A stretch of 64,000 nt of DNA from Mariannaea sp. PMI_226 (Eukaryota; Ascomycota; Sordariomycetes; Hypocreales; Nectriaceae), in NCBI GenBank assembly GCA_024336345.1, contig JANFOG010000001.1, positions 2,232,001 through 2,296,000 of the forward strand. The letters are read 5' to 3'. This document shows positions 28,521 through 58,100 of this stretch, in pieces. The translations under genes and the position numbers were made by a program. Position 1 is the first letter of the stretch. Each line of letters opens with the position of its first letter. The notes beneath the pieces are model-generated. The model made no database searches. It was not told the DNA's origin and saw nothing but the letters and a program-made list of their open reading frames with translations.

Positions 28521-29660
28521 ATGGAAGCATTTCCTCCCCTTTCCAGCCCTCCTGGTCTACCCGCCCGACATGTCGTCTCCCAACCACGAGACTATGTAAA
28601 CGACAAAGCCTTGGCGCTCCCTGACACCCCCTTCACTTGGCAGAGCCGGCTTGATAGCCTCCAGCTCCCCTATGTGGACAAAGACGACAACTCCCTCTTC
28701 TCCACCATCCGCAACGCCATCTCTCTCAATAACAAGTTTGCCAAGCGGTCCATGCTGCCTATCTGCAAGGAAATCTACGACGCCTTCTGCTCCGAGAGGA
28801 ACCCCGCCGACCGCCTCCACGGCCTGCCCATCGCACTTGTTCGCAAGCATGGCGAGCTTGCCGCTCAGTGCCTCATCCGGGTCTGGGAGCTGTACATCGC
28901 CTTCACAGCCACGCCCTTCACTATTGATGCTGACCACGACCCCATCAAGGGGGACACCTTCGGCAAACTTTTGCGGGACGTCGCCCTAATGCGAGTCCAC
29001 AAGCAGGTCCTCCGTGCCATGCTGGAGATTGCGTTCAACGATTAGGAATCCCGCGATCGTCTTATCGGCAACAAGGAGAATGGTCAGCCCGTGGTTGACC
29101 AAGGCATCGGGTCACAATTCGACTCAGTCCGCGTGGCCAACCAACTCGCTCGCATCTCGCGCATGACCAGGGAGGCCATGGTCCTCCAGGCCTTTTACGA
29201 GTTCGTCAACACTTCGACACTGCTGGATATAAGTGAGGAGAACAACGCACCCCTCGGGGAACCTCTCAAACCTGCCATGACTACCATCTGGAATGCAACC
29301 CTGAAGGTGCATGAGTTCCTTGGTCTCAACGAGACCGAATCCCTAATCCTGCAGCACCGGGCCTTCATGGTCTGGACCATCGCCGTCAACGCAGTCCAAC
29401 GCTGGGAGGTGGGAGGCCCCCGGCTGGCCAACTTCACTACACAGTTCTGTCAGGACTTGTTGGAACTGGCGGAGGCCCGTGGCTCTGGGCAGGAGTGTAT
29501 CGACGCGTGCGTGGCTCTCCAGTACGACATCATGGTCAAGGAACAGGCAGACTTGATGGCGGATGTTGGAATCAAGCGACAATTCGAGACGGCGGAGGAG
29601 CTGATGAGGAAGAAGACCAAGTTGGAACCTGAGGCGGATGACGATGTTGATATGATGTAA
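28521..29660 (+). pseudogene. Unrecognised gene with one in-frame TAG (380 codons)
   Basis: One continuous frame from the ATG at 28521 to the TAA at 29658-29660, broken only by a TAG at 29043-29045 (codon 175). Both halves have the same frame, high G+C at third positions and no frameshift, so this is one gene. The downstream half has no ATG for about 40 codons, which argues against two genes. The product (379 residues if the TAG is read) is helical with no family I know: an N-terminal Pro-rich start, LPYVDKDDNSLFSTIRNAI, a region around RNPADRLHGLPIALVRKHGE, and an acidic tail ending DDDVDMM after a basic KKTKLEPEAD. The last residues suggest a nuclear protein, which is only inference. The TAG may be a strain nonsense mutation, a sequence error or an edited codon; see the findings. 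Confidence 0.75.
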
Positions 29661-31409
29661 CTTTGTTTGCGTTAGTATCGTATCTGGGTCCGAATATTCC
29701 CCTTCTCTATTCCCGCTTCGATTATTCTCGCTTGGGGCATTATCTCACTATTTGAGACGGTTTACTCTTGGTCCATTTGGCAAACGCTGCTTTCTCAGTC
29801 AAGTTATAACGTGCCTACGGGACATGACACCGGTTTAAGGATCATTGGTAGCTTTATTAGATCACCAAATAACAAATTCCATCGCCATCGCGTGCTCTCC
29901 CTCTTGCAAAATTTTGGTCAGTTGGGTTGTTCACAAAGAAAATGACGTATCATTGCAACCATCTCGACATAGTTACCGAGCCATCGCCGGTCGACACCGA
30001 GGGTTGTGCAGCAAGTGTACTAGCCACGGCTAAATCAGAAAGAGTTCAGCTAATCAATATTTGTGTAACCGAATAGGTGTTTACGTGTTGTAGCTAAATC
30101 CTCGGTCAGCCCGCTTCCTCCCGCTCCTCCAGCCACACCACAACCTAACGCCGTGCTTCCGTACACCGACTTGAGGAGACCTTTTTCCTTCCAACATAGC
30201 CGGGCTACAGAAAAAGCAGCAAACCCCGCAGCAACCCGACGGGGGGGGGAATGCGATAGTGCGATTTTGCATGTTTCTGATCTCCGCATTATGTGGGCCT
30301 GGGATCTTATGCGGGAGAGAGCTCTCATGCGGTAGCACACGACAGCTTCGAGTAAGTGCCTGGTGCAAGGGGAGCTGTTCCGTCACGATGCAGCAGTAGA
30401 AAAGACGAAACTATTAGAGCATATACGTAGTAACTATGTACGGGGGGGCATGCAAGCTCATCAGGAATGCAAGTCTGCATTAAGTAATTGTCCCATATGG
30501 CATCATTTGTTCGTAATATTTACACAAGATAAAAAAATATCGCGAATCGTCACCCTCACTCATGCAGAACGAGTCGCATTATGCTCACAAGACACAGCAA
30601 GATGTGGCACCAGAAGTTTTTCGTCTCGTTCTCTGTTCGTCCTCCGTCTTGATTGAGTAACTGTCTAATTGCTTTGACTCTATCATCAATATATAAAAAG
30701 GAGAAGCATATTCTAGGCAATATCGAGTGACAAAGAGACTGCCAGAAAAGGCCCCATGGTGTTGCTCGCTCGAAGACTTGTCTAATAGACCGGGGTGGGT
30801 ATAAACCGAAGAACTCCTCGAGAAGAATGAAGAAGAAAAATAATTGAAGAAAAATAATCAAGAGACGGACGGAAAGGGCTTTCCAGGTGAATATCGTTTG
30901 GCGGTCAACCCAAAAGCCCTCAAGATAGTCCAGCCCGCCTCTCCCCGCACTCCAAGCCAGCCACCCCCTTTCACCTCCTGTGACTCCAAAGCTTTTGATT
31001 GAAAAAGAAAATCCATAACCTTTTTGTTGAAAAAAAATAGAAAGAAAAAAAGAAAAGCCATCTATAACGCCGTTTGCCAGTGTAAATGCTCAAATTCAAG
31101 GCCCTTTCCGCTGTTCGCCCTCTTTTTTTATTCGCGCCGTTGTACAAGGATCTCGTGTGTTTTGTTCGTGATCGTGAGGTGAGTTATATTCGCGTAGGTA
31201 GAGTTGCAACAAAAAATGTCATAGTGGAGTGGGTGGGTGGATGGGTGTGTGTTTGTGTCATTTTTTGCATTGTAGAGTGTTTGCGCTGCCTTGAGCAGGC
31301 TCGTTGAGATGCAAAAAAAAAAAAATTGCAGCCATCGAGGGGGGAAGTCGTGATGAATTCGTAGTAGTTGGGAGGAAAATTAGACACTCGAAAACAGAGA
31401 GTGCAGAAA
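29661..31409. other. Convergent intergenic region
   Basis: About 1.7 kb between the broken gene and the 3' end of UPS2. Only short A-rich frames occur; no gene or RNA was recognised. Confidence 0.55.
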
Positions 31410-31976
31410 TTATAGAGTAGCCAACTGTCGTTGACGCTCCTTTTCCTCGGCAAAGACTTTTCGGCTCATCTCAAGGACGCGCTCGAAGCCCTCACGTCCC
31501 TTGACGGCGTTCTCCTTGAAGCGATGCACGAGGGTGTCCTCGATGCTGTTCTTGATGCGCTGCCAGCCTCCGCACAGGGCAGTGATGTTGGCGGTCTGGA
31601 TGAACTGGGTCTGGTGGTCACCGAGGGGCCTGTAGATAACCTCCTCTTGTACGTTGACAAGGTTGCTCCAGGTCAGGTTCTGGCTGACCATGGTAACAGT
31701 CTTATTGACGGGATCAACGTAGCTCGCCTCGTAGACCTGGTGCTCTTCCATGCAGTTGCCCATGATGGTCTTGAACCAGTCGGGAGCTGACTGCTTGCAG
31801 GTGATGAGTCGTTCGGTGCGCAGGATGCCGGTTTCGGGGTCTACTTCACGGGAGATGGTGTCGACGGCAATGACGTGCTCCGACTTGTTGTTCCAGGGGC
31901 CATACTTGCGCCAATTTGCCGAGGATACCTCGTCCCAGGAGTAGTTGTAGGTGACGGTGTTGGAGAAGACCTTCAT
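31410..31976 (-). CDS. UPS2: PRELI/MSF1-domain protein Ups2
   Basis: A single exon of 188 residues. Ups2 with Mdm35 carries phosphatidylserine to the inner membrane for conversion to phosphatidylethanolamine. The N-terminus is MKVFSNTVTYNYSWDEVSSA followed by NWRKY, closely like yeast Ups2 ([26 protein letters not shown]) and unlike Ups1. Next come HVIAVDTISREVDPETG, RTERLITCKQSAPDWF, and SQNLTWSNLVNVQEEVIYRP. The C-terminal helix is GREGFERVLEMSRKVFAEEK. It is shorter than the yeast protein (230), which has an extra tail. The start ATG is fixed by the conserved first residues. The leader carries a GA repeat 50 bases upstream. Confidence 0.93.
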   Translation of the reverse strand: MKVFSNTVTYNYSWDEVSSANWRKYGPWNNKSEHVIAVDTISREVDPETGILRTERLITCKQSAPDWFKTIMGNCMEEHQVYEASYVDPVNKTVTMVSQNLTWSNLVNVQEEVIYRPLGDHQTQFIQTANITALCGGWQRIKNSIEDTLVHRFKENAVKGREGFERVLEMSRKVFAEEKERQRQLATL

Positions 31977-33941
31977 TTCTGAAGATTTGGAAGGATGGAT
32001 GGATCGTTTGGATATATGTACGTGAGAGAGAGAGAGAGAGAGAGGTGCGGGAATAATTTATGATAGGGTTCGCTCTCGTCGGTGGGGGGTTTTTGTAGGA
32101 GCAAGGTGTTGATGCTGATGTCGGGTGATAGGATTACCCGTGTGTAGAGGTAGTCGAGAAAGAAGCTCTCCGGGAGTCAAAAAGTCAGGCTCGATTTTTT
32201 TTTTTTTCCTTCTCGGTACGAAGCACGGATAGCCGAAGCTGGTACGGTGAGACTCTGTGCGCAATGACGGAAAGCAGAGTCTAGAAAGGACCGATCTAAA
32301 AGAGAACAAATAAAATAAAAGAAAGAAGCTCTCTTAACGAACCGACAACGGGCGACAGGAAACAATGGATCACAGGTTTGACAATGGAGGGGGTGGACAA
32401 GAATGCGTGTGCGGCCTTTTTCTATCTTTAATACGTTTAAAGCCTCCAGCGCCTTTTTTTTTTTTTTTCCCACTTACTCACTGGGCTCCGGGGGCGGCGC
32501 GTGTGCTCAAATTTTTACCATGTGAATCAATCAAAGTCGCTATCTCCGGGTCTCCCACCTCCTCTCCTTTCGGAGTCCATCGGCTTCAGTCGTCCCAAGA
32601 GCCGCCAACCCTGATTCGGAAGATACTAGACCGGATGCGGCATGGCCTTTGATAAGTTGCGATAAAGCCTCGGAATTGGCAGAGCTTCAGCTGCGATGTG
32701 ATTGGCCCGGCCCGCAGGATGCGTATTCCCCCCATCCCCCGGCCCCCCTTCGCTGTTCGCACTTGTCACTTCTCCAGAAGAGAGCAAGAACTGGGCGAGG
32801 GGGGGGTCGAACCGCGAACTCGCACCGCCACAAGGTGGCGAGTGATGCAATGGTCAACTGAGTGTCACTGCGAGGAAAAGTCCGGAGAAGAAAGAGTGGG
32901 GGCCAAAGGCTGGGGAAAGGTGAAGGTTGGTTGATTGAGCGAGCTCGTGGACTAATCTGTACTGTGTAATGATTATCAAAGCTCCAAAAAACAGGCCTTT
33001 TGACCTCAAGACGGGAACGCTCGGGCGCCGATTGATTGATTGATTGATCTGAGGCCACAAAGGATCGTGCTCGGTCATCCAAAACCCAGCATGATTTGCA
33101 AATACAGTAGTATACAAGTTTCTTTTACCTCTTCGATCCTTGATCTACGGCAGCATAGGATCTTCAGCGCCGATGCTTCGGAGGATCGATCGATCATCTT
33201 GCAGGGAAATGGGCAGATGTTGGCAGAAGCAGTGGAATTCCCCAATGCGTGTCCCCAATATCATTGGTACTGTACTCGACACCACATAAATACTGAGGTG
33301 TAACATTGAGGGTCCCTCCCGGGGCAGCTTGATTCGCCAACTAATAAGCTTGCTTCTGCCAGGCCCGTTGAAGTCTCTTAGGTCTTATTAGAGATGCTGA
33401 GTGAGGCTTAACCACTGGTCAGCTTCTTGAAGCATAATGATAGCAGTCTGATATTGGTACATGGCTTTCAAGCTATTATAAGTCCGATTTTAGCTGGCCA
33501 AATTGGCTTTTATTTATCCATGGATAGAAAAAATAATATTAACCACAAAATTTGATAAAGATTATGGCTTGCCTGTTTTGTTTCGGCGTAATTTTGGTTC
33601 GGGGATCAGAGGTCAGGCTGCTACTAGGTTGGGTTGTCTACTGAAGAAGAGGTGAGATCGCCGAAGGTGCGCGGAGAACACAGCCCCTCCATCGCATTCA
33701 CAGCCAATATTGCAATTTGGTTACACAGCAACTACGCGCTGTAAATGGGATAAAAATAGAGAAAACACATATTCATAACACAATGGGCGAGTTTTATTTC
33801 AGTGGCGTTGTCAAACTTCAGACTACATAGCACATTCATTTACTCCGCCTTTGGTTACCCTACAACACAAAACAAGAGGAGGGTCATATTTCAGAATCCA
33901 TCTCGTAACGCTCACCAAAGCACCGCAAGGTTAATGCGGTT
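31977..33941. other. Intergenic region between UPS2 and MAP2
   Basis: It holds the UPS2 promoter and the 3' region of MAP2. An (ATTG)4 repeat is at 33031-33048. A tRNA-like T-arm word near 32808 on the minus strand does not fold. No gene was recognised. Confidence 0.55.
32024..32044. repeat. (GA)n tract in the UPS2 leader
   Basis: Ten GA units on the plus strand, so TC units on the coding strand, about 50 bases upstream of the UPS2 start. Pyrimidine tracts are common in fungal leaders. Confidence 0.85.
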
Positions 33942-35509
33942 TTAGTAGTCGTCACCACGGCTGATAACCTCCTTTACGGTAGGTCGAATCAGAATGGTCT
34001 AAATTTTAATATTAGTTACCTGACACATCGGTACAAATGGGAAAGGGGGGGAGGGGAGAGCGGTTTCGACTTACATGCTCGTATTGAGCTGTGTACGAGC
34101 CCTTCTTGTCACACAAGGGCGGGTACGCCTCGACAATGCCGGCGTTGACCAGGCTGTTGAGCTGTAAAATGGTTAGCAAGGGACTGCTAAGGTTTAGCAG
34201 TGAAATGCGCATGAGCAACATACTCCAAGCAGGTACTTGTCCTGTCCGAGACGGTCCAGGTAACGGCGGCAGAATGGCAGGGTGCCAAAGTTCTTGTTAA
34301 TCACGTTGAGCAGGTTCTTGGCCGAGCTCAAACGCAGGTCGACGTGCTGGACGTCCTGGTTCTTCGCGTAGTGCGAGGTCTCCATGTCGTCCCGGACATA
34401 ACCGTTTCCGGTGCTGCCAAAAGTCTCGATGGCGAAGACGTCACCCTCCTCCATCTTGGTCTGGTCGTTGCTCTTGACGATAGGCACAGCCTTGGTGCCG
34501 TGGATGCTGTAGGGCAGAATGTTGTGGCCCGTCAGGTTGCGGATGCTCTTGATAGGGTACGTGGTGCCGTCAATCTCGACCTCGAAGCTTTCCATAGTTT
34601 CCTGAATAACACCGCCAATCTCACCAACTCGAGCGTCAATGCCTGCCTCACGGATACCAGCGTTGGTGGCTTCCTTGACGGCCTGGAGCAAGTTGTCGTA
34701 TTTCTGGTCAAACGACATGGTAAAGGCAGAGTCGACGATGCGGCCGTTGACGTGGACACCAAAGTCCACCTTCATGACATCCTGCTGCTGCAGAACCATT
34801 TTGTTGCCGGCGTTGGGGGTATAGTGCGCGGCACAATGGTTGATGCTCAGACCACAGGGGAAACCCATACCGGCGACCTTGGCATCGCCCTCGGTCAAGC
34901 CCTGGTGACCGGTGAGGGCGCGGACGCTATCCTCGATGCCCTCGGCAATCTCAGTGAGGGACTGTCCGGGCTTCACGTTCTGCTGCGCCCACTTTCGGAC
35001 CTGACGGTGGACTTCAGCGGCCTCACGATAGTCAGTGAGGAACTCGGTGTTGAGGTTGTCGAGGTGGCGCTTCTCCTCGTTGGTGGTACGGTAGTTGTTT
35101 TCGTCCTTGTACTCGACCTCCTCGCCCTTGGGATACGACTTGTTGGGGAAGAGCTGGCTGACCAGAACTCGGGGAGGGTTGGTCTGGCTGGTGGCCTTCT
35201 TCTTCTTGGGCTTTCTCTTCTTCTTCTTCTTGGCAGCACCAGAGGACGCACCGGTAGCATCGTTGGCAGGAGCATCGGCTTCGTCTTCGGAGTCATCACC
35301 GCCGTGATCATCACCAGTGGCGGCAGTTTTTGATTGAGCGGCAGCGCCGGGGGTCTTGGAGGGTTCGGTCACTGCGGGGTGTCGACGATGATGATTAGCA
35401 GGTGTAGCGGGGGTAAGCCAACGAGGGTTTGCGCCAGTGAAACGGTTGAGGAGGGCACACACATACCAGAGAGGCCCTGAAGGGCTTCAGAAGGAACCTG
35501 GGCAGCCAT
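33942..35509 (-). CDS. MAP2: Methionine aminopeptidase 2
   Basis: Four exons on the minus strand (35467-35509, 34224-35371, 34075-34161, 33942-33998) encode 444 residues. Introns begin GTATGT, GTATGT and GTAAGT. The enzyme removes the initiator methionine from nascent proteins in the cytosol and is the fumagillin target. The N-terminal extension alternates acidic repeats and a Lys block ([12 protein letters not shown]), which binds ribosomes in this class. The catalytic part shows the metal ligands: D in [16 protein letters not shown] (two Asp), H in [12 protein letters not shown] in AIETFGSTG, and the last E in YTAQYEH just before the third splice. [18 protein letters not shown] contains the catalytic His. 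The end is [12 protein letters not shown], as in orthologues. Confidence 0.97.
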
Positions 35510-36988
35510 CTTGAGCCAAGTTGTTGTGTGGGCTTGGGACAAATAAAAGGAAGCTGAACCTGTTGAAAGAAGACCGAGAAAGAAATCGTTCAGTCTGCAG
35601 TCAAGACGGGGTGGGATTAAAAAGTGGGATGGATAGGTAACCCCACCTGGCAGACACAATTATCCAGACACTCGCACTGGTATTCTAGCAGACATACAGT
35701 ATATGTGGAATTCTGACCATACTTAAATTTTTCTAAGGCACACACCACCACAGATTTTTTTTTATCAATGACGAGTGTGGGTAGAGGAAACTACACGGGG
35801 AAATGTTGGCCGCTAATAAGCGGCTGTCCATACTATTCTACCTTTCAATACCCGGCGCGATGTGGGGAGCAATAGAGGGAGCACTATAAGAAGAGCCGCT
35901 AGGATCGTGTATATGGTATCCCTGATATTGAACTGAGCTGGCAATGGCGGTGACCTACAAACACAACGCGGTTGCAACGTAATTCTAAGTTCCTCTTCGA
36001 CTTTTGGATTGGCGAGTCTGGTCAAGGGCTTTTGCTATTATACGTGCGACTTGGTGGTTTCAGCCAGCTCGTGCTTGAGATGGAGAATAGAAGCAGCAAT
36101 ACGCAGCAATACCATTCCGGCTGTGTTTCCGCAATATCAGTACAAGAGCTCTCATGAATATGCCTTCATTTTTTCCCCCCTCTGACAGTATCCTCCTCCA
36201 AATATTCACACTCAGTTTTTGGCATTCTTTTGGAGACGCCTGAAAATATGTCTTGGAAAATAACCGAGCAGACTTACACACCCACCAGCACACTTGACTT
36301 GTCGTATCACGGCATCGGAGCAGCTCTTCGAAATTTGTACATCTGACGCTGAGATCGTTTCATTTCAATTTTTTTTTGCTGGCTACTCTTATAGCCCAAA
36401 CTGGCTTTCGGAGGATACGTGCTGGCACCGAACACCACATCCGCAGGCCGCCCATCGACAGGCCATGCCATGCTTAGCCGTGGAACAAGGGCCAAGGGCC
36501 AATCCTAATAGTCAGGTCACAAGCACCTCTAACAGCGCAAGGGATGCAGAATTCTGCTGTCATTACAAAGGGCTCTAGTCTAGTAACCTAGTAAAAAAAA
36601 AAAAACAGGACTGCACGGCAGCGATCAGCGATCTTCTCTTCTGGTTGATTAGCGCCATACCATGTCGTTGCTCTTTGTCAAGACAGGCCATGTGCTCTGG
36701 TTCCCTTCTGTTGCATTCTCGGCTCGGTTACGTCCGTCCGGTCTTGCACCCACGTCCTTGCCATGTGCCATGTGTTCATCCTCGTCCGTCACATATTGAT
36801 GGCCCTCTTGAGGCTCACTTCTCTCTCCATTAGCTACCTCCAGGTTTTCAGTCAGTTCCTCTCTGCCTTCACCACTTTGCCGTCTATGCTAGCCTGTCAT
36901 AACCTCGAAAAAGGGTGGTACTTTTGAGATACTTCCGGCTCGTCTGGTTCTCGAATTTCATTACCACACAGAAAGCAAGATATAAGTC
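35510..36988. promoter_or_regulatory. Divergent promoter region of MAP2 and the HET gene
   Basis: No gene is supported across 1.5 kb. Near 36700-36790 CT-rich words precede the HET gene. A poly-A run sits at 36592-36605. Confidence 0.5.
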
Positions 36989-38961
36989 ATGCGCCTCCTT
37001 AATACAGAGACTCTTCGCCTCGAGTCCTTTGTAGGCCCGGCCCCACGATACGCCGTCCTATCACATCGGTGGGGCGACGCTGAGCTTCTCTTTGACGAGG
37101 CTGTATGCGATGGCTGGCAGCACCGAGTCTTTACTCAAGGCGCCGAAAAGATCAAGAAAGCCTGCGCTCAGGCTCTTTACGACGGAATTGACTACATATG
37201 GGCCGATACTTGCTGTCTTGACAGGTCAAGCAGCGCAGAGCTTTCCGAGGCCATCAACGCCATGTTTGTCTGGTACCAAGAGGCTGCCGTATCTTATGCT
37301 TACCTATCCGATGTCGATATGGACGATAAGTATGCGTTTGCGCTTAGCCAGTGGTTCGAGCGGGGATGGACGCTCCAGGAACTCATCGCCCCTGAGGTTG
37401 TAGTCTTCTACGACGCAACATGGAGATATATTGGTAACAGAGACTCGATGGCCTCTCTGATATCTGAAATCACTAGTATCAACCAGCCTATCCTAGCACG
37501 GAAGAAATACGTGGAAACAAACTCACGTGGTTCCGTGCAGCGCCAGAGTCGTCACCAAACAGCTTACCGCCTTCGATCCATGTTGAGATCTTACAGTGTG
37601 GCAGCCCGGCTTTCTTGGGCAGCGGCTAGAAAGACTACAAGGGTAGAGGACATGGCATACTGCCTATTGGGTCTTTTTGATATAAATATGCAAATACTAT
37701 ACGGAGAGGGTAAAAAGGCCTTTCATCGCCTCTTCCTAGAAATAATACGGCATACAGAGGACCCTTCAATTTTGATATCATGGACCACTGCTGGGAACCT
37801 ATCCGCTGGAATGTCGTTTTACCGAGATCCTACGCATTACGCAGATAGTGGTGGTATTGGTTGGCTTAAAGCAAAAGGTGCAGCCTCTTCAAAAGTTTCA
37901 GTTACGAACCCACAGACCTTGAGTATCGAGGCTTTGTTGTGTCCCTGTGTCGTCCACGCTGCTGGAGACAGTTCCACGGACGACCACTTTGTTGTTGCCA
38001 TTATCGACTGCCATTTCGATAGGGATCAGTCGAGAGTAGGCATTGTTCTGCGGAGACAAGGGGTAGATGAAGTATTTGAACAGTATCAAGGTCTGCCCTT
38101 TGCTCAATTAGAAGCCCACTCGCAGGGGAAGGTGATAGGGTCTATGCCAAACTTGACATGCACGAAAAGTCGGTTCTACAATGCCTGTACCTATTCTTGT
38201 GTAATATCACTAATAATTCTGTTTGAACAGTTTCGTTTGTAGAAAAGGAGGCGCAACCTGGCAGCATCCAGGTAGCATTGACAGAGCGATCTGCAAGCGT
38301 TCAACGAAACCCTAGACTCTGTGTTACACCTCTGGTTCAACCACCAACCCTACACTACACAATCGGGACAAAAGACCTAGTCTCTGATGAGAAATGCATA
38401 AGGGATGGCGATGTTGGAGTATTTGTCGTAGAAAATGAATTATCACAAGGGTTTTTTCTGATATGGGGCTACAGCAACCTCGACGAGGACGACGAAGCAG
38501 CAGACAAAGGCATGATCAACAACGACCGGAGAACACCTAAACCTTGGTGTCGTATACTCCCGTGGAAAAAGAGCCCCACGAGTGTGCCAAAAAAAGTGTT
38601 GTCTCTCCAAGGCGAACCGGACATATTCGTGCTTGATCATGACCCAGTAGAGCTCTTCTCAGCACGGGAGACGTTTGTAGATATGATGGAGCGATTCCGG
38701 AAAAAGCGTAGCGACGGCCAGGTCGTCGATTTGGGGGACATTGTGGTCCTGGCGATGTTCCGGCCAAAGACCTTTCTCGGATACACCCAGTACAACCTGG
38801 TGGTTGAGATTGAGCCTTCAAGGACGGCGGTGGGCAGGACATCGTTGGGCGCGACGAGCATGACGAAGAATGAATGGAGGAGAAAACGGACAACATGGGA
38901 GCGATTCAGCCCTCCTCACCTGATGGTCATTGCGAAAAAGAAAGCGATTGAATGGCTTTAG
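36989..38961 (+). CDS. HET-domain protein
   Basis: Exons 36989-38186 and 38231-38961 encode 642 residues. The intron (GTACCT...ACAG) is only 44 nt. The HET domain (about residues 18-160) is typical: PRYAVLSHRWGDAELLF, KIKKACAQALYDGIDYIWAD, TCCLDRSSSAELSEAINAMF, WYQEAAVSYAYLSDV, then WFERGWTLQELIAPEVVVFY. These proteins can trigger cell death when incompatible hyphae fuse. A family-typical segment follows (RVEDMAYCLLGLFDINMQIL, YGEGKKAFHRLFLEII). The C-terminal third has no known signature domain (NACHT, ankyrin or WD repeats are absent). Without the splice the frame would stop right after residue 399. The gene sits alone, and HET genes turn over quickly between species. Confidence 0.9.
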
Positions 38962-40334
38962 TCACGGGGAGGCCGAGGCTGAGGCCGCTGACGGAGAACG
39001 AGGCTATTCGCAACTGCGGTGGCTTGGGTCAGGCCAGGTAATGCCGGGCAGCGGCAGATGCATACTGTACTGCTAACGTAGGTACTCTATGTACCACTGG
39101 GGGACTCGTACCTGAACCTTGTGGATGGACCCCGGAAGCGATAATTATAATTATAGCATTTGACGCTACCTTAGGTCCTGGAGGCATTTTGACGATATTC
39201 TCAATTACTATGTAACGTTTGCATTTAATGGCCGCCTACGGAAATCGAGGCGAATCCAGTGAATCTAGTGAATGAGTTTCTTTTCCTTTCGAATTCAGGG
39301 GACTTTGGGTATAATTGAGATGCCTGCTCTGGATTGAGGGGTCCTGTCCCCGTGGATCGGCACGTAGACGACAGATTACGTTGCAGGTAGAAGAATTATT
39401 ACGTGTGCGGCTTTATTAGTGCGGCGCGCGCCATTGTAACACCCTAGGCAAGCAATCCGAGGTAGCTAATCTGTAGACTGGACAAGTTTTGTCCCTAGTT
39501 CAGAGGGAGCTTGTGGTCAACGTCCCCTGTAGATTGTGGCCCCGATGACCTCATCAGCAGGGCCAAGAAGCTTGGAAAGATGAAATATAGACTGGGAGCG
39601 CTCTGGTGTTGGTTGTCATGTCAGTACCGGTGTACAATTTACGTGTGCGGTAGCTGCCGGCTGGGCTCAACTACATCCGCGTTCACGATCGTGAGACATC
39701 TTGCCAGGATTTATTTTTGTTTCCTTGCTTGGGTGTGTCTCTGCTCAGTGCGTCTTGGCTGATGGAAAGTAAGCCGCTCACAGAGCTTCGAATCGCCTCA
39801 TGATTGCGTGGCGTGGCGCAAAGGGGCCTTTTTTATGTATGGAGTCTACTAGTATCTTCCTGAGCCATGTAAGAAGAAAGTCCAAGCAGCCATTGCAAAA
39901 GGAAACCCTTTCCTCGTATTCACACGCACACACACACGCACACTGCAGTGATGAGACCTGAGATGCCCTTACTCACTGCACAGGGGATTAATCGGGCATC
40001 TCTGTCAGTTGCAAGCTAAGCCGCAGGCTAGCGGAATTAGCGGACGCCTCATCGCCACTCCGTCCCCCCAAGACGCAAAATCCCAAGGGACCCCTCTCCG
40101 ACCCGCCTGCTTGGGGACGAAGCAAGCACAACGGTCGGCTGGTCGGGCTCTCCAGAACAGACTCACTCCCGTTGCAATTCTGAAACCTTGGAACTACTCC
40201 ATTTAGACGGCACCCTTATAAGCCCAGTTTCCCAAGCTCTTTCACTACTACTCATCTCCTCCCCCCCCTTCTCCTTCTTTTATTCAGTACCTATCACAGA
40301 CAAATCGTCAGATTCTATAACCAAAGCTGCAGAA
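38962..40334. other. Intergenic region
   Basis: Tandem genes on the same strand are separated by 1.4 kb. A CA-rich tract with embedded CACG lies near 39921-39944. No gene was recognised. Confidence 0.5.
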
Positions 40335-41593
40335 ATGGGAAACCCAGCAAACGAGCCCCCAACATCAAGACCAGCCGACCCTGATACTTCAGAGGCGCCT
40401 CCCCTACCACCCAGACCACCAGGACCACCTCCTCCGCCATATGTCCAAAACGCAGGAGACGATGCCAACCATGCCCAGAACCAGCGAAGCACATCTTCGC
40501 CCTCCTCGCCAACAGGCCCTGGAAACGGGAACCATCAAATCACCCGCAAAGCTGTGCCCAACGCCCGGCCACCGCTGCCCCATCTCGAGATCAACACTTC
40601 GCAGCCCGAGGACTTTGACGGCGAGCTCGCCACTAACAACGAGCTTCCTTCTCGCGAAACCCTCCGTAAGATTGAGGACTATGTCGTGCTGGACCGCCAC
40701 GGGAAGACGCACACCTTCAAGAGTCTACACACTGGCAGCAATGTCGCCCGCCGTGTTCTCATCATCTTTGTCCGCCATTTCTTCTGCGGGGTGAGTACAT
40801 ATATTTCCTCCTGAAATCGACTGCGCCTCCCTCTTCGCTCTCTCTGTCCCAGAAGCTAAACCCACATTGGTGCAACTAGAACTGTCAAGAATATCTCCGC
40901 TACCTCTCCGAGATCATCACCCCCGAATCTCTCCTCCGTCTCCCCGTAAGCACCTTCATCGCCGTTGTGGGATGCGGCGACCCAGCACTCATCGACATGT
41001 ATGTTGAGGCGACCAATTGTCCGTTCCCCGTCTATACAGACCCAACACGATCGCTGTTCCAAGCGTTCGGGATGATCAACACGCTGGCACTGGGGTCGAA
41101 GCCCGCGTACATGCGCAAAAGCATGACCAGATCTATTGTGGAGAGCGTCGTTCAAGGCCTGAAGCAAATCCCCAGCGGAAACGTTCTCAAGTCTGGAGAC
41201 CAGCGCCAGGTCGGCGGCGAGTTTCTCTTTGAACCGCGAGACATTGTCACGCCTGTGTCAACGCCTCGTGAAGAGAAGACAAAACGTGTTGGCGCATTCG
41301 AGGAACCTAATGATGCTGCACCTACCAACAGTGGTAAAGGTCCCGTCGAGAAGCATCATGGTGATGAAGAGAAGAGGGTGACGTGGTGTCACCGAATGAA
41401 GACCACACGAGACCATGCCGAGATTCACGAGCTGATGGAGGTTCTCGGTTTGGACCCCTCGCATGTACCGATTACCCTCCAGCAGCAACACCCGGAGACT
41501 CTCACATCTTCGGTTCGCAAGGGCCAGGGACAAAGCATGGCCGAGGAGATTCGTAAACTGAGCGCTGAAATGAGCCGAACTTCGTTATCCTGA
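40335..41593 (+). CDS. AhpC/TSA-like thioredoxin-fold protein (PRXL2/AAED1 type)
   Basis: Exons 40335-40790 and 40880-41593 encode 389 residues; the intron is GTGAGT...CTAG in phase 0. The middle has the thioredoxin-like AhpC-TSA_2 domain found in peroxiredoxin-like PRXL2/AAED1 proteins: VLDRHGKTHTFKSLHTG, VLIIFVRHFFCGNCQEYL with the CxxC pair C151 and C154 spanning the splice, then FIAVVGCGDPALIDMY and FPVYTDPTRSLFQAFGM. Catalysis is inferred from family, and substrates are unknown. The first 50 residues are Pro-rich (APPLPPRPPGPPPPPYVQ), a possible SH3 ligand. The last 100 residues are low-complexity with a Glu/Lys-rich link. The start is the first ATG after a CT-rich leader. Confidence 0.85.
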
Positions 41594-41768
41594 AGTTCAA
41601 TGGATCTATGAAATTGATTTCGGTCAAAGCGACGGAGTAAGGAATGGGTATTCTGTTTTTTGTCACGACAGCTTTATGCATATTGCTTCCTCTAAAGTTA
41701 CACGGATGGTAGTAAATCGGGTCACCTGTAGGCAGTAGAACTTGGTGCACCTCCTGGAAAATGAATAA

Positions 41769-41792
41769 CGAGCGAGCGAGCGAGCGAGCGAG
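41769..41792. repeat. (CGAG)n tandem repeat
   Basis: About six CGAG units lie in the short space between the 3' ends of the peroxiredoxin-like gene and the P-loop kinase gene. Confidence 0.85.
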
Positions 41793-41850
41793 GTTTCTTG
41801 ATATAAATAATTATGTTTTTTTTAAATTGTTTTTTGTTGGTTACTATTTC

Positions 41851-42810
41851 CTATTCATGTACCCAGCTTCCGTCTTCTCTGCTCTGAACAACCTCATCAA
41901 TTCTGAGCTGGTGCTGTATGATATCGTCTCCGTTTGGCAAGTCGTTCTCTATTGCCCTACGGTCCCCTTCCTCAATGTTTCTGACAATTCCGGCCCTTAC
42001 GTGTCTCTCTCGTAGCCTTTGCCTCGCAACATCGCGGTCCACTTCGACGAACCATAACTCGTCCAGTAGCGCAGCGGCGTCGCGCCAGACGTCCCGGTCA
42101 AGCGCTAGGTAGTTCCCCTCCAGCACCACAATGCGATGGCTCGGCAACACGGCAATGTCGTCGTCCTTGGGATCCTTGATTGCGTGGTCAAAGGACGGTG
42201 CTAGAACGGGCTCGGCGGCTGGCGAGACGCGCAGGGCCTGCACGAGGACGAGGAATCTGGGTGCGTCAAATGTGAATGCGGCGCCGCGGCGGGCGTGGGC
42301 GACGGCGGGGTCGGGCATGGCAGAGAGGGCGGCGCGGGTCAAGTGGAAGCCATCCATGGGGACGAAAGTGGCAGGGAGTGAGGAGGACGAGAAGGAGGAG
42401 GAGGCATGGCTAAGGGACTGGGCTCGTTCGTTGAGGCGGGTGGTGATGACTTGGGACAGAGTTGTTTTGCCTAAAGGTGATGACGAGAGGGTGGTGGTCA
42501 GTGAAGAGGTAATGACGCAACGGGAGGGATTGAGTTACCTGACCCGGGGATCCCAGAAATGCCAATCACTAGAATAAACAGAGAGAAAGATTCAGCACGG
42601 ATTAACCAAAATTGGGGTGATGAGAAGCTCAACGCAGTCATTGTCTGATATCATGACATCCCCCATCATGACTGGTGCCTGTTCTTTCAGGATGGATGGC
42701 AAGCATGAACTGGGGGAGTTGGATTGGAACTTACGCAGCCGTTGGTCTGGCGGTAACTCCTCATACAACTTCCACGCCTTGTCCACGAGCCTCCTGACCT
42801 GGTCCTCCAT
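41851..42810 (-). CDS. P-loop kinase, Yfh7 / uridine-kinase-like family
   Basis: Three exons on the minus strand (42735-42810, 42539-42568, 41851-42470) encode 241 residues. The second exon is only 30 nt and holds most of the Walker A motif, IGISGIPGSG|KTT (G31 to T38 once joined). The remainder has VPMDGFHLTRAAL (Asp-Gly-Phe-His motif of the phosphoribulokinase/uridine-kinase/panK class), FDAPRFLVLVQAL, and VVLEGNYLALD (Walker B-like), with RHVRAGIVRNIEEGDRRAIE closing the lid. Yeast Yfh7 is an ATP-binding protein of this group with unknown substrate. Introns begin GTAAGT and GTAACT. The gene converges with the previous one. Confidence 0.87.
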
Positions 42811-43813
42811 CTTTTTTCTTTTTCTTGAGAGGGCTCCGGCTGGCAGACGAGGTGTTCGTGAGGTGGGAAGTTGTGCAGTTCAGCTGGTGTGCTTCCCCCC
42901 CCGCACTGTTCGTCATTTGGAGCACAAGGTGTGGTACCTAAATCCTGTACCTTTGGGAGGGACGGGAGCAAATTCAATTCAAGTACGTAGGTACCTTACG
43001 TAGTAGATAGCTAGATTAAAATACTGTACCTACCCCACGTTACCAATCCACACATACTCACAAATACTGTATGCTCTAAATACAGATTACTGGGGTCCTT
43101 ACTCCACTGAGACTTTGACCCAGATCGATCGCCCATGAGTCAGTGATGTCAGCGCTGACTGAGACTTTTTTGCGTATCCATCGAGGTAACCCTTCTGTCA
43201 ATCCCTGTGCCATAGTACGTATCTTCATACTGATGAGTGAGTGACGAAGCCCATTGATTATGTGCCAAGCGTATTATCTCAAAGAAGTTTGTTTTGGTGC
43301 TCTTGAAGGAGTACTCTTTTTTCTTTCTCTTTTTCTATTGCAGCCCTCTCCCCTTTTAATTTATAATATTCCTTTTATTCCCATTTTAGTGAATTGGTGA
43401 CCGAGAATTAGGTAACTGTATGTACCGATGAAAGATACAGGAGCTGGCGGCCATCATGTCATCAAAACTAAAGCGTTTGCAATGTTACTCCAATTATACT
43501 CCAATTACCGCTCATTCCTTTAACCACACCACTCTGTTCATATATGAAAATAATACTATATACTTTTTGTCAAGATGCTGTAGCTTAGGTTTCATCTTCT
43601 GATGATCCAGGACTTCAGAATTCGAAAATAGGCCCATCTTGGTGGTTTGTAAATGGTAAATAGGTAGCCGTAAGTGGGGTCGTCATGGCCATCTAGGTAG
43701 GGAGTCAATCCTAACAGTCAAGAAAAAAAAAAACTAGGCCTTGGATGAGTCAAAACCCACCTTCTGACTTGATCACTCCATCAACCTACCTCCTCCACAA
43801 AACCTCCCTTACA
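42811..43813. promoter_or_regulatory. Divergent promoter region
   Basis: It lies between the P-loop kinase gene and the small acidic gene. AT-rich, with several GTACCTA/TACGTAG words at 42984-43036. No gene was recognised. Confidence 0.5.
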
Positions 43814-44332
43814 ATGGATGACGAAGAAAACGGCCTCTTCAACATCGAAATCTCTGACGACTCCTCAGACGAGCGCGAGGCCAAGTTGGCCCGTCGGACC
43901 GGCCAGTCCGAGGAAGCCTGGAAGGCAGTTCAGAGAGACTATCGTGCCAAGGTTGAGAATGGAGACGTGAGTGCAGAGTACTACTTATATATATATACAT
44001 ATACATATTTATATATGCATATGTTCCCGAATATTGTGATGCTGATTGTCATCAAGATCTGTTCAAACATAAAACTGCCCATTGGCAACGGGGCCTCAAA
44101 AGCTGAGCTCCAAGAGCTGCTTCATGCAGTCGAGGAGATGTACTTCTTTCGTCACTATGAACGAGCTATTCAGTTTGTGAGCGATGTTCTCACCCAAAGT
44201 GAGGGCATTGACGATGAGACAAGACAGATGTTGGTGATATATCAAGACAAATGCCGACGGAAGCAAAAACTCAAGATTGAGACAAGTCAAAAACAATCCA
44301 GCAGCGACAATGTTGAGCAACCTGGAAATTGA
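43814..44332 (+). CDS. Small acidic hypothetical protein with a helical (TPR-like) segment
   Basis: Exons 43814-43966 and 44057-44332 give 142 residues. The intron is 90 nt (GTGAGT...CAAG), a multiple of three with no stop. Unspliced RNA would therefore be translated through as a Tyr-rich string. I prefer splicing because of the strong donor and the AT-rich TATATATACATA content. The N-terminus is acidic (NIEISDDSSDEREAKL) and the centre is LQELLHAVEEMYFFRHYERA then IQFVSDVLTQSEGIDDET, which looks like a TPR-type helix pair. A Lys-rich tail follows. An in-frame ATG at 43745 could extend the protein by 23 residues. No function is known to me. Confidence 0.7.
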   Translation: MDDEENGLFNIEISDDSSDEREAKLARRTGQSEEAWKAVQRDYRAKVENGDVSAEYYLYIYTYTYLYMHMFPNIVMLIVIKICSNIKLPIGNGASKAELQELLHAVEEMYFFRHYERAIQFVSDVLTQSEGIDDETRQMLVIYQDKCRRKQKLKIETSQKQSSSDNVEQPGN

Positions 44333-44638
44333 ATAAAACCCTTCCGTTTCGAAATATCTCGCATTAATCTGCCTAACTTAGGTATTGCCTACATTCCCCA
44401 GAGGCCTGGGGTTGAAGATGATTGAAACCCATTATCTCTAATAGATCACCCCTGTTCCAACCATCTTCTTCTCTCCAAAGCAAATTCCATCACCCCCGCC
44501 TTAAGTGGAAAAATCTCTAAGCGGCGAATAGAAGCAGAGGCAGAAATACCTTATGGTTCAGAGGGTTCGATGACCAACACATCACAGCAATAAATCCTAC
44601 CGTCCGTGGTTAAGGCCGTATATTTTGTATATACATCC
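44333..44638. other. Convergent intergenic region
   Basis: About 300 bases shared by the 3' ends of two convergent genes. No feature was seen. Confidence 0.55.
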
Positions 44639-47021
44639 TTAGTTGCCCCCCGTGAAATTCCCATGAAATGCAATAGGTCTTGATGCAAAGCGTGATGAAC
44701 TCAGCCCCTGAAGAGACTTTCCTGCTCCTGAAGCTGAGACGGAGCGTTGGGCAGAACGGGTTGCTGGAGTTTCTGGCGAGTTGGGCATACCACTCGTGAT
44801 GGAACTGGTCGAAAAAGCTCGATGAGAAGTCTTCATGCCCAGATCAGGTTCCGAATTTGCCCAATGAGAAGAAGCAAGGCCATTTACAGGTCGACTCTGA
44901 GTGCTCGAGACAGCTCCATTCGAGACAGAAGTGGCATTGCAAGAGATTTTAGGTGTCGACGTTTCGGACACCTCTCCATTGGATGCATTGATCATCTCAA
45001 CGTCTTCAACGCTCGCATTCTTGACCTCAGCACCAACTTTTACTTGGGAGGCTACTTGTGTACGTCGAACAATCGACCGTGCGGCAGCAGCCGCTGATAT
45101 TGGGAGACCTTTTGTTGCACTCCAATCATTTGGAATAATGGCTTTGGATCGAAGAGCGTTGATATCCTTTGGGGTGTACTGGAGACGGCTAACAGTTCCA
45201 AAGATTGCGGAATACCGAGAAGCATCTTCCTTCTCGTAATCTTGAACACGGTCTTTGGCTTGCTTTGTGTAACGAAGATGCATCTTAATCTTGATATGAG
45301 CCATACTTCGGAGGACAGCAATCAGATGCTCTTTGATTTCATCATCGAAATCACTCATGAAGCCTTGCTGAACCCAGTATTCAATTGCTCCATCTTCGAT
45401 ACCCTTGACTACAGAGTCGATGAGATGATCTTCGAAATGGTAATGAGTGATGACCTGATCGATTAGGTTGATGATATGGCCAGCAGCATTGTGAAGTGTC
45501 GGAATTTGCAAATTCTGGACCTGTTCGAAGCCATTGAGATCAATAAGCTTTCCATCTTCCACATCAACAACAGCGGGACTTTCAGCAACCGAAGCTGCCT
45601 GGGGAGGAGAAGAGAGACCAGTAGCAGGGCTCTCAGTGGCGATGCCATCATGTGAAGTGGGTGGTATGGTGTTACCCTTCAGGTGCGCAGTCACAGATTG
45701 CTGCAGGCCCTCGATGTACTGCTTGAACTTGTTCGTTTGGCTGGGCGTGCCGAGTCTTAGGTAGTATACGTATTCTTTATCCCGAAGCTTGAGCTTGCAG
45801 AATTCTCCGTCAATGACGGGGGGCTCTATGTCCAATATACCGTGCACTCTTTCTCCTCTGCCGCCTTTTTGACTGACAAAGTGGATACAAGCGTCGTTTT
45901 TGTCAAGCAGTACAACCATCTTGAAATCCACTATGAATTTGGCCTTTTCGAGCTGTCCTGGAACCACCTCACACTCTCCACGAATAAGCACATGCTCAGA
46001 TTGTGCATCTGCATTCTCTTTCGTTTCGTGATGTTGAATTGGAGTGGATTTATTGGCGATATGATCTTGTGAGGTTTCATTGGTTTGCTTCAGTGGAGGG
46101 TTGGATTGTATTGGAGTTTGGGACAGAGGCCCGAATGCAGGGATAGATGCGGGATTGAGCTTGCCATTTGAGGCTGGAACTGCCCTAGGGGGCCCCCATT
46201 GAGCTTCGATTGGACGGGTCGCTGGATTTGATCGCATATCTCGCACACGGGATTCCTAACCCCGAGCTGCAGGCCTGAAATGAACTCCGTTATCAAAGGA
46301 TGGTTGGACAGGCTTGCCATTTTTGGTTTGAGGGCCACTATTGTGTTATTATTAACCTCATCTTCGTAAATAAATTGGAATATCGACAGGTCTTACTACT
46401 TGGCGGCATCGCTCTCAAGGATATGTCTGGCAACCTTGGCAGCCCATGGTCGAGCATCCTCAATCCGAAGGCCTTCGGTCTGACGAGATTCCTCGTCAAC
46501 AATCTCGACTAGGGACAATTTTAGCGTGGATGTTTCTTTTCCCGCAGCAGAATATTTCTGTTCACCTTGCCATCTATCATTGAGATGATCCTTGAGCTGT
46601 GGGCTGTAATGTGAGGTTCCATTCCTCCCACGAGGGTCATAAGTCGGCCCTTTCTTCGCGACATTGCTAAGCGGGAGTTCTTCCTGCCGCTCACGGCTCA
46701 AGTCGGCCTATGGAGACGATTAGGAGTTAGAGAAGTTCGCGTGGCGAGGTATGGAGGTATAAACACAGCGATGAAGAGAGCAGAGTTAGAGTTGTAGGGA
46801 AGAGTGCGTCCCAGAACTGGTAGTTCCTTGCCAGCCACATGAATAACGAAGTCAAGCCAGAGACTGAAATATTGTAGGGTACTCTAGGGGGGTTTTAGGT
46901 GGTAGGATATGAAGAAGGGGACGGGTTGACCTTTCTTGGCGCCAGGAGTTGACCAGTGGAAAGACAAGGGAAGACTTACCATGCAAGCTGCCTCAACCAG
47001 GCGAGGATCGATGCTACTCAT
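44639..47021 (-). pseudogene. Unrecognised large gene with one in-frame TAG (684 codons)
   Basis: Three exons on the minus strand: 46980-47021, 46397-46707 and 44639-46337. The introns begin GTAAGT and GTAAGA, with clean acceptors CATAG and AATAG. The frame runs to the TAA at 44639-44641 and is broken only by TAG at 46256-46258 (codon 145). The model was built from splice signals and frame continuity, as no homologue is known to me. The start gives MSSIDPRLVEAACM then ADLSRERQEELPL. Downstream a compact beta-rich stretch (FIVDFKMVVLLDKNDACIHF, CKLKLRDKEYVYYLRLG) could be a PH-like fold. A helical region around EHLIAVLRSMAHIKIKMHLR and a Ser/Thr-rich tail follow. An extra intron ending at the TAG is possible but unlikely, because its donor is poor and two earlier CAG acceptors precede it. 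Confidence 0.72.
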
Positions 47022-55188: not shown

Positions 55189-58100
55189 ATGTCGTACGAA
55201 CGTTTAGGTGAGTCCATGGCATTCCCCTCGTAACCCCCTTCCCTGCCTCGCTGCCAGTTGGCATTGAAGCTCCCCTTCCCCGTTCCTTCTCTTCTACCTC
55301 ACATGAAACCCCCTCCACCCTTGGTCCCACGCCCCTGGCTTTTTGTTCGAGATTGCGATTTGCATACTTGCGATTTGGGAGTTGAGCGGCGCTGGGATTT
55401 CTCTTCCTTCTCTTCATCTTGTTCGCTCTCTCTGAACTCCTGTTCATCTATTCTGTCTCTCCCTTTTTCTCTCACGCAAGCAAACACTTTGTGTGTCGCA
55501 GGTTCGACTGAACAAGCTTGTGCCTTGTACCAGAGTGAAGAACCTAAGCCATTGTGACGGAGCTTGTTCTTAGTCGTTTCTAGCCTACTACATCTTCTAC
55601 TTCCTCACTTGAATCGTCCGGATATTGCTTCTTTGAACTTACCCCTAACCTTCACCTTTAATAGACGACAATTACTACAACAACCAGATGGACCGTCGCG
55701 GCCAACACCGGACGCCTTCTCCAGGCCAGCAAGGCTACAATCTTGATGATGAGCCCTACGGCCACCAGGGCTATTCGCAATCGCATCTCAACATGCCCTC
55801 TGCTGACATGCATCGAATGGGGACACCAAGCGACCACTTGACCCTTAACCCTGCCGTGAGTGCTTCCGGCGCCTCGTTGAGTTTGCTCTGCGCCACAGAA
55901 GAATGGCTGCTAATATGAATCCGTTCATAGTATTCCGATGTCAATGTCTCCCACGATGGTTATGGAGACTACTCTGTGAATCCTGAGAGACATCATGACG
56001 CCTACGGCAACCAACCTTACCAACCGAATCCCCAGGAGGGCTACGACGAGTATTTCGATGACCACCGACCTATGCTGGGACACCAGACTTCCAATCTGAC
56101 GAATGAACCTTACGATCAGCCAACGCCCCCGCCTCCACCCTCAACAGCAGGAGGAGGACTTTCGCGAGCGAAGACTGTCAGGAAGAAGGTTGAGCTGTAC
56201 CGTGGAAACTTGGTGCTTGATTGCCCTGTCCCTCCTGCTCTTCTGAGCCAGAACCCCCACGGCGAGCGAGACGAGTTTACGCATATGCGATATTCTGCGG
56301 TCACCTGTGATCCCAATCAATTCTACGAGTCAAATTTCACCTTACGACAGAAGCTCTTCAGCAAGTCGCGTCATACTGAGCTATTCATTGTGGTAACCAT
56401 GTACAACGAGGACGATGTTCTCTTTGCTCGAACCATGATGGGTGTTTTCAAAAATGTTGAGTACATGTGCAACCGGCCGAACAGCAAGACGTGGGGCAAG
56501 GACGCTTGGAAGAAGATTGTAGTGTGTGTCGTGAGTGATGGTCGTGCCAAAATTAATCCACGAACAAGGTCTTTGTTGGCTGGTATGGGCGTGTACCAAG
56601 AAGGCATTGCGCAGCAGAAGGTCAATGACGACGAGGTCACAGCACACGTTTACGAATACACGACGCAGACCCATTTGCAGCTCAAGAACGACGTCGTCTC
56701 GTTGGTGCACAGGCGTCAGCCCGTGCAGATTCTTTTCTGTCTCAAGGAGAAGAACGCCAAGAAGATCAACTCTCACAGATGGTTCTTCTCAGCCTTTGGC
56801 CGCGTGCTCGATCCCAACATTTGCGTTCTTATCGATGCTGGTACTCGTCCTGGCGGCAATTCCATCTACCACTTGTGGAAGGCTTTCGACCTGGAGCCAA
56901 TGTGTGCGGGCTCTTGTGGTGAAATCAAGGCCATGTTGGGTACTGGTGGAAAGTATCTCTTGAACCCGCTCGTTGCTGCGCAAAACTTCGAATACAAGAT
57001 GAGCAACATTCTCGACAAGCCTCTAGAATCAGCATTTGGTTTCATTTCGGTGTTGCCCGGTGCTTTCTCAGCCTACCGATACGTTGCTTTGCAGAATGAC
57101 AAGAACGGGCAGGGACCGCTGGAAAAGTATTTCCTGGGAGAGACGCTGCATGGTGGAGGTGAGGCAGGTCTATTCGAATCCAACATGTACTTGGCTGAGG
57201 ATCGTATTCTTTGCTTCGAATTGGTTACCAAGCGAAACTGCCACTGGATTCTGCAATATGTCAAATCCGCTACTGGCGAGACTGATGTTCCGGATACTGT
57301 TACCGAACTTATCCTTCAGCGACGTCGTTGGCTAAACGGATCGTTCTTCGCCGCTATTTATGCCATTGCCCACTTCCACGACTTCTTCCGATCGGATCAT
57401 AGTGCTTTCCGCAAATTCGCCTTCTTCATTGAGTTCATCTTCAATACTATCAACATGATTTTCGCTTGGTTCGCCATTGGTAACTTCTTTCTGGTTTTCA
57501 AGATTCTCACCACCAGTTTGGGAGACCCAACTCTACTCGGTCGAACCGGAGAGATTCTTGGTGTTATTTTCACCTGGCTCTACGGCGTCTGCTTGATCAC
57601 CTGTTTTGTACTGTCACTTGGAAACCGACCTGCTGGATCCGGAAAGCTCTACGGAAGTATGGTTTGGTTCTGGGCTGGTTTGATGATGTAAGTGCCGCTT
57701 TTCTTTTCCAACCACGCTGCGTTGACCGCTAATTCTTTGTTTCTAGATACCTCCTTTTCGCTGCCATTTTCATCTCTGTCAAGGCGATTATTGCTGATGT
57801 CAACGATGCAGACGGCTTCAGCATCGATCAACTCTTTAAGAACAAGGTTTTCTACACGCTGATCGTTTCCGTCATGTCGACCTATGGACTTTGGATCTTG
57901 GCCTCTCTGCTCATGTTCGATCCTTGGCACATGGTCACGTCTCTAGTCCAGTACATGCTTCTGACCCCTTCGTTCACAAACGTTCTTAACGTCTACGCTT
58001 TCTGTAACACTCACGATGTGTCTTGGGGAACCAAGGGTGATGACAAAGCTGCTCCTATCGGTCACGCCAAGGTTGAAAATGGCGAAATCAAAGCTGATTT

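What the first reader, a model, noticed from the sequence alone, without database searches (positions are those of the whole stretch)
29040..46264. Two intact genes each stopped by a TAG in the same 12-nt word, TTAGGAATCCCG
In the gene at 28521-29660 the TAG is 29043-29045; in the gene at 44639-47021 it is 46256-46258 on the minus strand. Both give the peptide context stop-E-S-R. Both TAGs sit at the start of TTAGGAATCCCG, so nine bases beyond the TAG match (TTAG + GAATCCCG). Chance sharing is of order one in a few hundred thousand per pair. In each case the A of the TAG is the first base of an AGG loop. The minus-strand gene has a 7-bp stem (CGGGGUU / AAUCCCG); the plus-strand gene has a 4-bp stem (GAUU / AAUC). 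Sordariomycetes such as Fusarium graminearum and Neurospora edit A to I in sexual tissue, favouring U before the A and hairpin loops, and restore UAG to UGG in genes that look like pseudogenes. Two genes in one window with the same element would be a striking example.
Basis: partly seen in the sequence, partly recalled or inferred. Interest (0 to 1): 0.8.

Follow-up and report, generated by a model that had tools for sequence, protein, structure and literature searches.

The report
Two stop-interrupted fungal genes, probably edited
Two otherwise intact genes of a soil fungus each contain one stop signal of a kind that related fungi are known to overwrite in their RNA during sexual reproduction; this is a known pattern in a new genus, and RNA data would be needed to prove it here.

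Summary
The window is from Mariannaea sp. PMI_226 (Nectriaceae, Sordariomycetes). Both in-frame TAGs are real and both lie in TTAGGAATCCCG. The 12-mer is not an element: 5 genome copies against 5.03 expected, the other 3 in frames full of stops. Informative are its core UUAGGAA, which has the preferred base at all six neighbours of the published Fusarium A-to-I editing site, and the genes themselves. In the minus-strand gene the TAG aligns with tryptophan in 3 of 21 homologues (all three Fusarium), with a doubtful glycine in one and a gap in 17. The deposited protein lacks exactly 13 residues at the stop, as if a 39-nt intron had been drawn around it, an artefact described for edited genes. 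The plus-strand gene is coding-like on both sides of its TAG but has no detected homologue. The same genome has in-frame TAGs in two genes of types known to need this editing in Fusarium: a kinase with tandem TAGTAG, as in PUK1, and a probable rid. Best reading: premature stops corrected from UAG to UGG by Tad2-Tad3-Ame1-type editing in sexual tissue. It is a new member of a known kind. No RNA was available; editing at the two sites is inferred, with good support for the minus-strand gene and moderate support for the other.

The parts
28521..29660 (+). gene 1: single-exon gene, 379 codons before the final stop, one in-frame TAG (codon 175); no homologue found
   Evidence: no homologue; no family
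29043..29045 (+). in-frame TAG of gene 1; candidate edited A is 29044
29042..29053 (+). word TTAGGAATCCCG in gene 1; UUAGGAA has 6 of 6 preferred neighbours of an edited A
   Evidence: preference in PMC9600606 section 6
46980..47021 (-). gene 2 exon 1
   Evidence: protein identical to deposited P0002 apart from 13 residues at the stop
46397..46707 (-). gene 2 exon 2
44639..46337 (-). gene 2 exon 3, with the in-frame TAG (codon 145) and, after it, the part coding for a PH/EVH1-like domain
46256..46258 (-). in-frame TAG of gene 2; candidate edited A is 46257
46248..46264 (-). hairpin CGGGGUU-AGG-AAUCCCG with the candidate A first in the loop; contains the second copy of the word (46248-46259)
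46222..46260 (-). 39-nt stretch whose removal gives exactly the deposited protein P0002; judged a wrong intron drawn around the stop (inferred from the protein; no annotation record was seen)
   Evidence: donor GTTAGG, no CTRAY-type branch site by eye

Best explanation
Both genes carry a premature UAG that is corrected in the mRNA, most likely in sexual fruiting tissue, by A-to-I deamination to UIG, read as UGG (tryptophan). The enzyme would be the tRNA deaminase Tad2-Tad3 with its cofactor Ame1, as in Fusarium graminearum. Without correction, gene 2 gives a 144-residue product without its PH/EVH1-like domain, and gene 1 a 174-residue product. Shown here: the stops, the open downstream frames, the W alignment of gene 2, the sequence context, the gene 2 hairpin, and in-frame TAGs in two other genes of types known to be edited in relatives. 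Inferred: that editing happens at these two sites, when, and by which enzyme.
For: Organism is a Sordariomycete. UUAGGAA has 6 of 6 preferred positions, as do only 124 of 5253 TAGs. Gene 2 TAG aligns with W in three Fusarium proteins, 12 of 12 pairwise alignments. The deposited protein differs from the read-through only by 13 residues at the stop, the false-intron artefact described for PUK1, 69 other F. graminearum genes and CHE1. Gene 2 hairpin. Kinase with in-frame TAGTAG where kinases have W, as reported for PUK1. Probable rid with an in-frame TAG; rid needs this correction in two Fusarium species. DUF726 (Ame1 domain) present at what I group as three loci. Gene 1 coding-like on both sides.
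Against: No RNA evidence. No homologue for gene 1, so W there is a guess. Only 3 of 21 gene 2 homologues have W; 17 have a gap and one a doubtful G. The 30 codons just after the gene 2 stop score poorly as coding (-0.143). No excess of TAG among interrupted frames: TGA 12, TAG 6, TAA 2; TGA 3, TAG 2, TAA 1; TAA 3, TAG 1 in the window. The gene 1 stem is not predicted, and the TAG in the rid-type gene is paired, not in a loop, in its predicted fold. Two such genes in 64 kb exceed the Fusarium density.
Confidence: 0.72

Rival explanations
1. Plain nonsense mutations: one or both genes are recent pseudogenes or null alleles of this strain, and the TAG is not corrected.
For: No RNA evidence; gene 1 has no relatives that would show constraint; interrupted frames with TGA and TAA also occur in the sample.
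Against: One lesion in 683 codons and one in 379 codons, with long open frames after them; the part of gene 2 after the stop is still recognisably homologous (23-41% identity in six homologues); same preferred context at both sites.
Confidence: 0.15
2. The stops lie in real short introns: 39 nt in gene 2 (46260-46222) and 66 nt in gene 1 (28980-29045), so that ordinary splicing removes them.
For: The deposited protein P0002 corresponds to removing the 39 nt; the intron pattern used flags a 66-nt candidate in gene 1, which would keep the frame.
Against: Donors GTTAGG and GTCGCC do not fit GTRNGY (the consensus is recalled); 39 nt is very short; the gene 1 stretch is strongly coding-like (0.357 bits per codon, in-frame median 0.121); the 39-nt stretch codes for residues that align without gaps with Fusarium on both sides of the W.
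Confidence: 0.08
3. Editing is real but done by an OLD-type (OTT_1508-like) deaminase outside sexual tissue, as reported for the zao genes of Neurospora.
For: Six PF14441 matches in the genome; OLD proteins share the preference for U at -1 and hairpin loops (PMC12754623 passages).
Against: No PF14441 match in the window; the nearest on this contig starts about 794 kb beyond it, whereas OLD targets are described as neighbouring genes; no Pfam zinc finger in gene 1 or in the deposited gene 2 protein.
Confidence: 0.03
4. Sequencing or assembly error at one or both positions.
For: Reads could not be inspected; the deposited protein and the window come from the same assembly, so they do not check each other.
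Against: Two sites with the same preferred context, and in-frame TAGs also in the PUK1-type kinase and the probable rid gene, make independent errors unlikely.
Confidence: 0.02

Closest known systems
Premature stop correction (PSC) genes of Fusarium graminearum: PUK1, rid, AMA1, AMD1 and others, about 70 in all (PMC4817773, PMC11156358)
   Same: In-frame UAG in an otherwise intact gene, U before the A, stop hidden by a wrong intron in the annotation (gene 2), W expected after editing.
   Different: Neither gene was matched to a listed PSC gene (the supplementary list could not be read); the Fusarium relatives of gene 2 that have sequence at the site carry W in the genome; no RNA evidence.
CHE1 of Fusarium (PMC11169179)
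   Same: UAG corrected by editing; annotation adds a small wrong intron, truncates the protein or starts it after the stop.
   Different: CHE1 is a zinc finger gene edited in hyphae; no zinc finger found here.
OLD-ZAO antiviral module of Neurospora (PMC12754623)
   Same: UAG corrected to UIG, preference for U at -1 and hairpin loops.
   Different: No PF14441 deaminase in the window, no zinc finger.

Membership tests
Fungal PSC-edited genes | In-frame UAG in an otherwise intact coding sequence | tested here: met
Fungal PSC-edited genes | U at -1 and preferred neighbours | tested here: met
   6 of 6 at both sites; preference from PMC9600606 section 6; background 124 of 5253 TAGs
Fungal PSC-edited genes | Edited A in a predicted hairpin loop (a preference; about 62% of sites in Fusarium) | tested here: inconclusive
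   gene 2 clear, gene 1 weak; 26.3% of 1500 random TAGs also qualify
Fungal PSC-edited genes | Tryptophan at the codon in homologues | tested here: inconclusive
   gene 2: W in 3 of 21, doubtful G in 1, gap in 17; gene 1: no homologue
Fungal PSC-edited genes | Automated annotation avoids the stop with a wrong intron (frequent, not required) | tested here: met
   gene 2 only: P0002 equals the read-through minus 13 residues at the stop; gene 1: no deposited protein was found
Fungal PSC-edited genes | Organism has the editing system | tested here: inconclusive
   indirect: in-frame TAGs in a PUK1-type kinase and a probable rid, DUF726 loci present; the Ame1 residues MV500-501 were not checked
Fungal PSC-edited genes | A/G mixture in RNA, sexual-stage expression | not testable with these tools
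   no RNA reads
OLD-ZAO module | OTT_1508-like deaminase gene next to the edited gene | tested here: not met
   six PF14441 matches, none in the window

The most novel reading that the evidence does not exclude
The gene 2 UAG is not an accident of one species but an old regulatory stop shared across much of Nectriaceae and hidden in databases by wrong introns, with tryptophan fixed in the genome only in one Fusarium lineage. In 17 of 21 homologous proteins the annotated sequence has a gap at this column; some segments look cut at the site (FKPAAP-ARWGP in two Fusarium proteins, AVS-TVHNLKQ in Thelonectria), and one metagenome protein begins just after it. Gaps are common in this disordered linker, and that protein may simply start at a contig end, so this is a lead only. 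Gene 1 would be a second, lineage-specific gene that is silent except in sexual tissue.
Probability: 0.3. Interest if true: 0.6.

Novelty: new member of a known kind. Interest (0 to 1): 0.45.

Why it matters
If confirmed, stop-correcting editing extends to Mariannaea, for which the one full-text search made (Mariannaea and RNA editing) found no paper, and two genes are added of a kind that standard annotation loses or distorts. Gene 2 would be a case in which relatives keep tryptophan in the genome while this species supplies it by editing, so one could ask whether such a stop is merely tolerated or is used as a switch.

Tried and rejected
The shared 12-mer as an element: rejected; 5 genome copies against 5.03 expected, 4 for the backwards control, and the three other copies lie in frames full of stops. 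Paralogues of gene 1: none at E 0.001. Homologues of gene 1: two searches with X at the stop, none at E 0.001 or 0.01; the method needs shared five-residue words, and a deposited product of only the first 174 residues could have been missed. Structure of gene 1 from a single sequence: mean pLDDT 43.9, not used. Families: none for gene 1 or P0002 in Pfam or NCBIfam. Solved structures by sequence: none for the gene 2 alignment; seven matches for gene 1 with E from 0.058 to 0.37, not used. Larger test for an excess of TAG: only 200 kb beyond the window could be had, and it showed none; gene 2 escapes that scan because an intron lies close upstream. The codon score also rates the antisense frame nearly as high (median 0.063 against 0.121), so it is a weak guide. 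AMA1 as a third control: places were listed but no letters could be cut out. Of 137 kinase matches reported (125 of 188 candidates scored), 16 have a TAG inside; I fetched 5 of these 16; one is the PUK1-type locus, the other four look by eye like stops in introns or, in L042, unclear, and were not tested. The kinase was called PUK1-type from the position and tandem form of its stops, and the methyltransferase probable rid from its domain; neither was compared with a Fusarium sequence. P0009, P0010 and P0011 were left out of alignment A1 because they start after the site.
Full report
What is there. The word TTAGGAATCCCG occurs twice in the window, and each copy places a TAG in frame inside a gene. 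Gene 1 is a single open frame, 28521-29660, with TAG at 29043-29045. Gene 2 is on the minus strand, with introns of 272 and 59 nt, 683 codons, and TAG at 46258-46256.

Which organism. The best homologue of gene 2 is P0002, a hypothetical protein of Mariannaea sp. PMI_226, 98% identical over the whole length, from a contig of 5,532,987 bases. The contig in which the window lies has the same length. Mariannaea belongs to Nectriaceae, Hypocreales, Sordariomycetes.

Is the shared word special? No. The genome of 42.2 Mb holds 5 copies; 5.03 are expected from base composition. The three other copies sit in frames with many stops. In the window 476 different 12-mers occur at least twice. What the two sites share for a reason is probably the editing context: in F. 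graminearum the favoured bases are C/U at -2, U at -1, A/G at +1, G at +2 and A/G at +3 and +4 (PMC9600606, sections 6 and 7 read). UUAGGAA fits all six; 124 of 5253 TAGs do. The remaining bases TCCCG look like coincidence.

Gene 2. One search found 25 proteins, one of them the organism's own. Of the other 24, 21 were aligned with gene 2; three that start after the site were left out. With the stop masked as X, the alignment puts X on W in F. culmorum, F. langsethiae and F. longipes, on a doubtful G in Ilyonectria, and on a gap in the other 17. The three W cases hold in 12 of 12 pairwise alignments (three proteins, four gap settings). Six homologues measured on both sides have 48-65% identity before the stop and 23-41% after it, over 362 to 509 aligned residues after it. 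P0002 equals the read-through of gene 2 minus exactly 13 residues at the stop, as if a 39-nt intron with donor GTTAGG had been drawn there. The same artefact is reported for PUK1 and for 69 further F. graminearum genes (PMC4817773, passages and section 12) and for CHE1 in some Fusarium species (PMC11169179, abstract and section 7). A model of P0002 from 24 proteins (mean pLDDT 53, the domain mostly 70-92) has a PH/EVH1/Ran-binding-like fold after the stop; best Foldseek E 1.2e-4. The truncated product would lack it. Against: the 30 codons right after the stop score -0.143 as coding, between the 5% and 25% points of in-frame windows, as may happen in a disordered linker.

Gene 1. Its two parts score 0.224 and 0.218 bits per codon (in-frame median of 21-codon windows 0.121), though this score also rates antisense frames fairly high. 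In a 264-kb scan with another coding model it was one of 6 interrupted frames that passed. No homologue, family or paralogue was found. A 66-nt intron that would remove the stop has a poor donor (GTCGCC) and codes too well for an intron (0.357).

Hairpins. Gene 2 has a 7-bp stem with loop AGG; 11 of 5253 TAGs have such a stem of 7 or more. The 4-bp stem of gene 1 is not predicted; its A is unpaired in an 8-nt loop with 30-nt flanks. 26.3% of 1500 random TAGs lie in a loop in the same test, so gene 1 gains little.

Does this fungus have such editing? Two genes known to need it were looked for. The kinase scan (137 matches) led to a locus with in-frame TAGTAG in YDGRCD**SIGIILYECL, flanked by a GAUGC/GCAUC stem by eye. 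The solved kinases shown align with W at the second stop and L at the first (ULK1); that NDR-type kinases have W at both is recalled. F. graminearum PUK1 has UAGUAG in its kinase domain, N. crassa UAGUGG and F. verticillioides UGGUAG (PMC4817773 passages). A DNA methyltransferase gene on C19, probably rid, has one in-frame TAG at C19:909981, with 158 open codons before and 452 after it and no GTRNGY donor in the 150 nt upstream; its A is paired in the predicted fold. F. graminearum and F. verticillioides rid need the correction (PMC7306014 passage). So both genes examined carry an in-frame TAG; a third, AMA1, could not be read. DUF726, the domain of Ame1, has six matches that I group as three loci. 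In F. graminearum the enzyme is Tad2-Tad3-Ame1 (PMC11087585 passages; PMC11156358, abstract and sections 5 and 6). OLD-type deaminases, which also correct UAG in fungi (PMC12754623 passages), have six matches in the genome and none in the window.

Against. There is no RNA. The sample shows no excess of TAG among interrupted frames: TGA 12, TAG 6, TAA 2; TGA 3, TAG 2, TAA 1 with the stricter test; and 3 TAA to 1 TAG, without a coding test, in the window. Two such genes in 64 kb is more than the Fusarium density would give (expected 0.12, P 0.007, with a 36-Mb Fusarium genome recalled), which may reflect a window picked for its oddity.

Verdict. Premature stops corrected by A-to-I editing: about 0.85 for gene 2, about 0.6 for gene 1, 0.72 overall (my judgement). 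A new member of a known kind, in a genus for which one full-text search found no paper on RNA editing.

Noticed in passing
L038 (G000:C12:4135200-4137700), TAGTAG on the minus strand starting at C12:4135788: Kinase gene with tandem in-frame TAGTAG (CD**SIGIILYECL), the form reported for PUK1 of F. graminearum; used here as a control.
   Followed up: partly
L008 position 1243 (G000:C19:909981): Probable rid methyltransferase gene with one in-frame TAG (SHLTCR*KLEVGF), 158 open codons before and 452 after; used here as a control.
   Followed up: partly
P0003-P0026, segment between ARPW and WGP: 17 of 21 aligned homologues of gene 2 have a gap at the column of the stop; some look cut there, which may point to hidden stops in other Nectriaceae.
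   Followed up: partly
window 36989-38239 (+) and 55976-57688 (+): Other genes in the window: a HET-domain gene and a chitin synthase.
   Followed up: no
G000: C1:3090507, C12:2554149, C19:1681527, C24:582571, C24:2047213, C5:637367: Six OTT_1508-like deaminase matches (the domain of the OLD antiviral editing enzymes); whether zinc finger genes with an in-frame TAG lie beside them was not checked.
   Followed up: no
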